The notes beneath the pieces were generated by a model that worked only from the letters and a program-made list of their open reading frames with translations, made no database searches and was not told the origin of the DNA. A program made the translations under genes and the position numbers. Positions 8,501 through 9,258 of a stretch of DNA of 14,797 bases are shown here, one piece after another. Source of the DNA: Nitrospinota bacterium (lineage in GTDB: Bacteria > Tectomicrobia > Entotheonellia > J063); assembly GCA_003696125.1 (NCBI GenBank), contig RFHZ01000399.1:1-14797 (forward strand), written 5' to 3'. Each line of letters opens with the position of its first letter. The first letter of the stretch is position 1.

Positions 8501-9258
8501 ACCATCCCTGGCGTATCCTCCTTGCCGAGGACAATGCGGTGAATCAAAGACTGATGGTGCAGCTATTGGAGAGGTGGGGACATGAGGTGTCTGTAGCCTG
8601 TACAGGCCGGGAAGTGCTCGCCGCTTTAGAGCGGGAATCCTTTGACCTGATCCTCATGGATGTCCAGATGCCGGAACTGAACGGGATCGAAACGACCCGG
8701 ATCATCCGGTCACGCGAAAAAGGGAGGGGAGAGCATGTGCCTGTCGTGGCCATGACCGCCCATGCCATGTCTGGAGACCGGGAACGGTGTCTGGCTGCCG
8801 GTATGGATGACTATATCAGCAAACCGATCCGCATCCAGGAACTCTTTACCATCATCGAGCAACTACAGCATAAGGAGATGCCAAGAGAAAGGAGAGAGCA
8901 GATGGAGTCCAAGGAAGTCTTCTTTGATCGCGCCGCGGCCCTGGCCCGGGTAGAGGGGGATGAGGAGTTACTGCAGGAACTGCTGGAGATCTTTGGGGAC
9001 GATTGTCCCCGTCTTTTACAGGAGATCCAGCAGGCGCTGCAGGAGGGGGATACGACCCGAGCCGCGCAGACGGCCCATACCCTGAAAGGCGCAGCCGGGA
9101 ACCTGGAGATGCGGGAGCTGCGTAAATTGGCTGAGGAGCTTGAACACCGGTGCCGGGATGGAGCACTGGCCGAAGCGACACAGGCTTACACGGTGTTGGA
9201 GAGAGCCTGGGAGCACCTGAGCGCAGAGCTCGACTCCTCGTTTCCCTCCACGCCATGA
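5518..9258 (+). CDS. Membrane hybrid histidine kinase: 7-TM module, Cache-like sensor, HAMP, GAF, HisKA, HATPase, REC, HPt
   Basis: A 1246-residue sensor holding a whole phosphorelay in one chain. The first 191 residues contain about seven hydrophobic segments (near 9-27, 30-50, 51-69, 74-90, 98-120, 130-152, 172-191), resembling a MASE-type module I cannot name. A likely periplasmic region (about 192-450) contains a Cache-like block, with [12 protein letters not shown] near 260 and [20 protein letters not shown] near 323-342. A last helix (451-470) and a HAMP-like stretch ([13 protein letters not shown]) follow. A coiled coil and a GAF domain (about 555-705) precede the kinase core. Catalytic residues: H733 in [11 protein letters not shown]846 and N850 of the N box, DTGIGIP from D899, GGTGLGL at 928-934. 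REC has D1048 in [11 protein letters not shown] and KP in YISKPIR; HPt has H1187 in [11 protein letters not shown]. The start is the first ATG after the upstream gene's in-frame stop; its ribosome-binding site is weak. Family resemblance is to BarA/TorS-type kinases; the signal is unknown. Confidence 0.93.
8890..8904 (+). promoter_or_regulatory. In-frame internal ribosome-binding site and ATG at the REC-HPt junction
   Basis: AGGAG (8890-8894) lies 7 bases before an ATG (8902-8904) that is in frame with the hybrid kinase and corresponds to residue 1129. Translation from it would give a 118-residue protein holding just the HPt domain (active H1187). The core AAAGGAGAG is the same nine bases found before fliA and cheY. 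The three Arg codons it spans are all AGA or AGG, whereas CGN forms predominate by eye in the surrounding genes. Function is unproven. Confidence 0.4.

What the first reader, a model, noticed from the sequence alone, without database searches (positions are those of the whole stretch)
8880..9258. Internal in-frame start could make a free HPt protein from the hybrid kinase gene
At the REC-HPt junction a strong ribosome-binding site (AGGAG, 7 bases before ATG 8902) is in frame with the kinase. It would yield a separate 118-residue HPt carrying H1187. The nine bases AAAGGAGAG also occur before fliA and cheY. The three Arg codons in the linker are AGA/AGG, although CGN dominates by eye nearby. Two readings are possible. 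Either the gene makes both a full kinase and a diffusible phosphotransferase (CheA is a known case of an internal start giving a shorter product), or the linker is the relic of an intergenic region from fusion of a kinase-REC gene with an HPt gene. A charged linker could also produce such a string by chance.
Basis: partly seen in the sequence, partly recalled or inferred. Interest (0 to 1): 0.6.

Follow-up and report, generated by a model that had tools for sequence, protein, structure and literature searches.

The report
Possible hidden phosphotransfer protein inside kinase
A bacterial sensor-kinase gene carries, just where its last domain begins, a ribosome-binding site and start codon as good as those of real genes, so the cell may also make that last domain (a small phosphate-carrying protein) as a free protein, much as is reported for ArcB of E. 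coli; nothing yet shows that it is made.

Summary
ATG 8902 is codon 1129 of the 1246-aa hybrid kinase, AAGGAG lies 7 nt upstream, and the 118-aa internal ORF holds a complete HPt with H1187. Scored for Shine-Dalgarno strength plus mRNA opening, the site beats all but 2 of 1,585 other in-frame internal ATGs in sampled genes of the same genome and about 81% of gene starts. Given the protein sequence, synonymous recoding reaches this in 0.7% of trials. By the same score E. coli ArcB shows one equally isolated site at its REC-HPt junction, where internal initiation has been reported. The ORF lines up from its start with free-standing HptB. The genome seems to have no other HPt outside CheA, but several HK-REC hybrids lacking one. 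A two-gene version with nearly the same REC-to-HPt spacing exists in Mesorhizobium. Against: class-level homologues lack the site, no close orthologue is held, and a cross-phylum enrichment of such sites was not replicated in two further sets. Best reading: a kinase-HPt fusion that kept a working internal start and makes both products. Production and function are not shown. A likely new member of a known kind, not a new mechanism.

The parts
5518..9258 (+). unorthodox (HK-REC-HPt) sensor kinase gene, 1246 aa: N-terminal hydrophobic segments, weak dCache match, GAF, HisKA, HATPase_c, REC, HPt
   Evidence: Pfam hits; dCache_1 is below its curated cut-off; hydrophobic N-terminus seen by eye
8515..8856 (+). 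REC domain (residues 1000-1113)
   Evidence: Pfam PF00072 E=1.4e-29 for the protein
8857..8976 (+). REC-HPt junction including the charged linker (residues 1114-1153)
   Evidence: between the two Pfam domains
8888..8896 (+). AAAGGAGAG, Shine-Dalgarno-like string
   Evidence: duplex energy with anti-SD -8.7 kcal/mol, as for cheY
8902..8904 (+). internal in-frame ATG (M1129)
   Evidence: combined start score ranks 2nd of 1,059 internal ATGs
8902..9258 (+). internal ORF, 118 aa, complete HPt
   Evidence: Pfam Hpt 64.5 bits; AlphaFold four helices, pTM 0.71; HPt structures are the top fold matches
8977..9225 (+). HPt domain
   Evidence: PF01627
9076..9078 (+). codon of phospho-acceptor His 1187
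   Evidence: AHTLKG motif
8878..8880 (+). second in-frame ATG (M1121), AAGGAG directly abutting it, a poor start
   Evidence: SD score +1.2

Best explanation
The gene makes two products from one mRNA. Translation from 5518 gives the full membrane kinase, which passes phosphate H(HisKA) to D(REC) to H1187. Independent initiation at ATG 8902, driven by AAAGGAGAG in an unusually open stretch of mRNA, gives a soluble 118-aa HPt. The free HPt would take phosphate from this kinase's REC and probably from the related REC domains of HPt-less hybrid kinases in the same cell, and pass it to response regulators such as those encoded next to it. The site most likely dates from the joining of a kinase-REC gene to a downstream HPt gene whose own start was kept. 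Shown: the anatomy, the start-like quality of the site, the completeness of the HPt, and the scarcity of HPts in the genome. Inferred: that ribosomes start there, that the protein accumulates, its partners, and the fusion history.
For: SD plus opening score -0.37: 2nd of 1,059 internal ATGs in 230 genes, 19% of gene starts as good or better, next best ATG in the kinase +7.06; 1 of 527 in separate contigs. Local mRNA folds less stably than 198 of 200 shuffles. Synonymous recoding p=0.007. Positive control: in E. coli arcB the GTG653 at the REC-HPt junction scores -0.77 against +5.89 for the next of 46 sites; arcB is among the internally initiated E. coli genes of Meydan et al. as cited in PMC11005335. 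The internal ORF aligns colinearly (13-102 to 13-100) with free-standing P. aeruginosa HptB (name). Only 3 Hpt hits in the genome: one CheA, one in a truncated ORF beside an MCP gene (probably CheA) and this one, against at least seven HK-REC hybrids without HPt. M. loti has kinase-REC and HPt as two genes 16 nt apart.
Against: No expression data. Class-level homologues (G003, G004) with REC-HPt lack the SD-ATG. Enrichment of SD-ATG at REC-HPt junctions seen in one broad set (12/36 against 74/1263) was absent in two others (0/7; 0/5). In the predicted fold part of the SD pairs with the downstream CUUCUUUG. HPt-less hybrids can also borrow the HPt of a full-length unorthodox kinase (LadS to GacS, PMC4866733), so a free HPt is not required.
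Confidence: 0.52

Rival explanations
1. Fusion relic only: a kinase-REC gene and a downstream HPt gene were joined by loss of a stop codon; the old HPt ribosome site is still visible in the linker but now makes little or no product.
For: Paralogue C458 (REC about 66% identical) stops a few codons after the REC. M. loti keeps two genes with about 52 nt from the end of the REC to the HPt ATG, against 57 nt here (counted by eye). Class homologues have unrelated linkers.
Against: The site is intact in SD, spacing, openness and ATG, and ranks with real starts. A strong open SD-ATG would be expected to initiate unless occluded; outside junctions internal ATGs in hybrid kinases show fewer SDs than other codons, as if such sites were usually removed.
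Confidence: 0.25
2. Chance: a charged Arg/Glu linker happens to read as purines and to precede a Met.
For: SD strength alone is met by 2.3% of internal ATGs and 5% of recodings of this peptide. Junctions are somewhat SD-rich for any codon.
Against: The combined score is matched by 2 of 1,585 other internal ATGs, the site falls exactly at the domain boundary, and the encoded protein starts where free HPts start.
Confidence: 0.23

Closest known systems
ArcB-C, the internal product reported for E. coli arcB by Ribo-RET (Meydan et al. 2019; cited in PMC11005335; that the product is the HPt is from memory)
   Same: Unorthodox HK-REC-HPt kinase; one isolated strong internal start site in the REC-HPt junction with nearly the same score.
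   Different: In arcB the best site is GTG653, here an ATG. That GTG653 is the reported start was not verified: the original paper is not held. Here there are no translation data.
CheA-S, short CheA of E. coli (cited in PMC11005335)
   Same: In-frame internal start in a kinase gene yields a shorter second protein.
   Different: CheA-S lacks the N-terminal phosphorylation site and keeps the rest (own knowledge); here the short form would be the HPt alone.
HptB of Pseudomonas aeruginosa, free-standing HPt in a flagellar gene region
   Same: Closest natural solved relative (7c1i, E=2.8e-6, 30% identity in fold search), colinear from the start codon, flagellar neighbourhood (PMC5085249).
   Different: HptB has its own gene; here the HPt is fused to a kinase. 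No HsbR/HsbA genes were recognised among the window's genes.
LadS-GacS relay
   Same: A hybrid kinase without HPt uses the HPt of an unorthodox kinase (PMC4866733).
   Different: There the HPt is used in the full-length kinase; no internal start is involved.

Membership tests
Unorthodox histidine kinase (HK-REC-HPt) | HisKA, HATPase_c, REC and HPt in one chain | tested here: met
   All above Pfam cut-offs
Unorthodox histidine kinase (HK-REC-HPt) | phospho-acceptor residues in REC and HPt | tested here: met
   [10 protein letters not shown] in the [13 protein letters not shown] with H1187 in the HPt
Internally initiated proteoform (ArcB-C type) | in-frame start codon with SD at proper spacing at the REC-HPt junction | tested here: met
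   AAGGAG, 7 nt, ATG
Internally initiated proteoform (ArcB-C type) | accessible mRNA and start quality like that of real genes | tested here: met
   rank 2/1059 and 1/527; 19% of gene starts as good or better
Internally initiated proteoform (ArcB-C type) | conservation of the internal start in orthologues | tested here: inconclusive
   No close orthologue held; distant class homologues lack it
Internally initiated proteoform (ArcB-C type) | short product observed in cells | not testable with these tools
   needs ribosome profiling or a tagged protein
Free-standing HPt (HptB type) | complete HPt fold from its own start codon | tested here: met
   AlphaFold four-helix model; HptB match colinear from the N-terminus
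Free-standing HPt (HptB type) | encoded by a separate gene | tested here: not met
   reading frame open from 5518 through 9258

The most novel reading that the evidence does not exclude
Unorthodox kinases in many bacterial phyla carry an internal start at the REC-HPt junction, so that one gene supplies both a membrane sensor and a shared soluble HPt hub; here the free HPt would serve several HPt-less hybrid kinases of the same cell.
Probability: 0.13. Interest if true: 0.62.

Novelty: new member of a known kind. Interest (0 to 1): 0.38.

Why it matters
If made, the free HPt turns one sensor into the likely phosphate hub of a genome that has several hybrid kinases but almost no other HPt, and adds a second case to the one reported in arcB. 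It also gives a simple, testable rule (SD plus openness at domain junctions) for finding hidden proteins in multidomain signalling genes. If it is only a relic, it is a clear snapshot of how split relays become fused.

Tried and rejected
Orthologue conservation: relatives, phylum and genome-contig searches found no close orthologue; a viral-contig scan found nothing useful. The nearest N-terminal relative (G004:C271) ends without an HPt. Conservation of SD-ATG sites in survey kinases of G152 and G358: no orthologues in their phyla. Within one genus (G127, G262, G387) the linkers differ too much to judge. A general enrichment of SD-ATG at REC-HPt junctions was strong in a set spread over many phyla but not replicated in one large phylum or in 14 plasmid-borne kinases, so it is not used as main evidence; L018 was dropped because it has no REC. 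Rare Arg codons as separate evidence were rejected: they are the purine string itself. Rfam found no RNA element. No 16S gene was found in the assembly, so the anti-SD sequence is the standard one, assumed.

Full report
What is there. The gene at 5518-9258 encodes a 1246-residue unorthodox sensor kinase with a weak dCache match, GAF, HisKA, HATPase_c, REC (1000-1113) and HPt (1154-1236). It follows flhA-flhF-flhG-fliA-cheY and a response regulator, and precedes HDOD, kinase and REC-GGDEF genes. ATG 8902 is codon 1129 in frame, with AAGGAG 7 nt upstream, and opens a 118-residue ORF holding H1187.

Is it more than chance? I pulled about 310 kb of the same genome, called 230 genes with a simple codon model, and scored every internal in-frame ATG. 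SD strength alone is not remarkable: 24 of 1,059 (2.3%) are as good, and control codons score 4-5%. Adding the cost of opening the mRNA from -19 to +15 changes this. The site scores -0.37 kcal/mol, 2nd of 1,059, while 19% of gene starts (best candidate start of each gene) are as good or better. In the kinase itself the next best of 35 ATGs is +7.06. A second set of contigs not used before (178 kb, 119 genes) gave 1 of 527 as good. Keeping the protein and redrawing codons from genome usage reaches the combined score in 0.7% of 3,000 samples. The local mRNA folds less stably than 198 of 200 shuffles, although part of the SD can pair with CUUCUUUG just downstream.

Positive control. In E. coli arcB the same score picks one site out of 46: GTG653 at the REC-HPt junction, -0.77 against +5.89 for the next. 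arcB is among the genes with internal initiation reported by Meydan et al. 2019, according to PMC11005335. That the reported product is the HPt, and that GTG653 is its start, I hold from memory or inference; the original paper is not in the library.

The product. The 118-residue ORF alone matches Pfam Hpt (64.5 bits), folds as a four-helix protein (single-sequence AlphaFold, pTM 0.71, residues 1-13 disordered), and its top fold matches are HPt structures. The closest natural solved relative is HptB of P. aeruginosa, aligned 13-102 to 13-100, that is, colinear from the start codon. HptB is a free-standing HPt placed among flagellar genes (PMC5085249).

Genome context. The assembly (94.8% complete) has three Hpt hits: this one, a CheA (L087), and one in a truncated ORF beside an MCP gene, probably CheA. 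It has at least seven HK-REC hybrids without HPt, three of them (C458, C966, C82) with RECs 50-67% identical to this one, including the first-helix region. A shared HPt would therefore be useful. This does not require a free form: LadS uses the HPt of full-length GacS (PMC4866733).

Origin. The paralogue C458 stops a few codons after its REC. In Mesorhizobium loti the kinase-REC gene and the HPt gene are separate, 16 nt apart; counted on the sequence, about 52 nt separate a common point in the REC end from the HPt ATG, against 57 nt here. The M. loti HPt is 34% identical to this one. So the anatomy fits a two-gene operon joined into one frame with the HPt start kept. Fusion and dual production are compatible.

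Wider survey. In 73 hybrids from many phyla, in-frame ATGs in the REC-HPt junction carry an SD (duplex -6 or better) more often than other internal ATGs in the same genes (14/39 against 74/1263; 12/36 after removing one locus without REC). GTG, TTG and control codons such as CTG and Ile show no such excess, although Pro and Asp codons show a smaller one, so linker composition contributes. Two further sets gave 0/7 (one large phylum) and 0/5 (plasmid-borne kinases). I treat the enrichment as unreplicated.

Conservation. It could not be tested properly: the phylum has 5 genomes and no close orthologue. Class homologues with REC-HPt have Ala/Pro-rich linkers without the site, so at that distance the site is not conserved.

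Verdict. Most likely (about 0.5) the gene yields both the kinase and a free HPt; next a fusion relic with little output; about equally, pure chance. As an internally initiated HPt it would be a new member of a known kind.

Noticed in passing
window 2588-2617: flhG probably starts at ATG 2615 (GGAGG 7 nt upstream) rather than at ATG 2588 inside flhF, which has a weak upstream site (-3.2).
   Followed up: partly
window 13476: Codon 350 (ATG) of the REC-REC-PAS kinase gene 12429-14795 has the third-best internal start score of 1,059 (+0.36), mainly because the mRNA is very open (SD only -5.0).
   Followed up: no
window 5300-5511: The response regulator at 4894-5511 has a Cys-rich C-terminal extension (CTYCKKIRDD...CPRCYE), like a zinc ribbon.
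   Followed up: no
L241:548-4802: Mesorhizobium loti plasmid: kinase-REC and HPt as two adjacent genes 16 nt apart, followed by a response regulator overlapping the HPt gene; a split version of the arrangement in the window.
   Followed up: partly
L126 (G152:C4), REC-HPt junction: A 1316-aa hybrid kinase with AAAGGAGGAAGT-ATG at its REC-HPt junction, combined start score -4.2, stronger than the window's site.
   Followed up: partly
L290 codon 291; L077 codon 209: Two other internal ATGs of the same genome score better than the window's site; both lie in ORFs cut by contig ends and may be real gene starts or internal starts.
   Followed up: no
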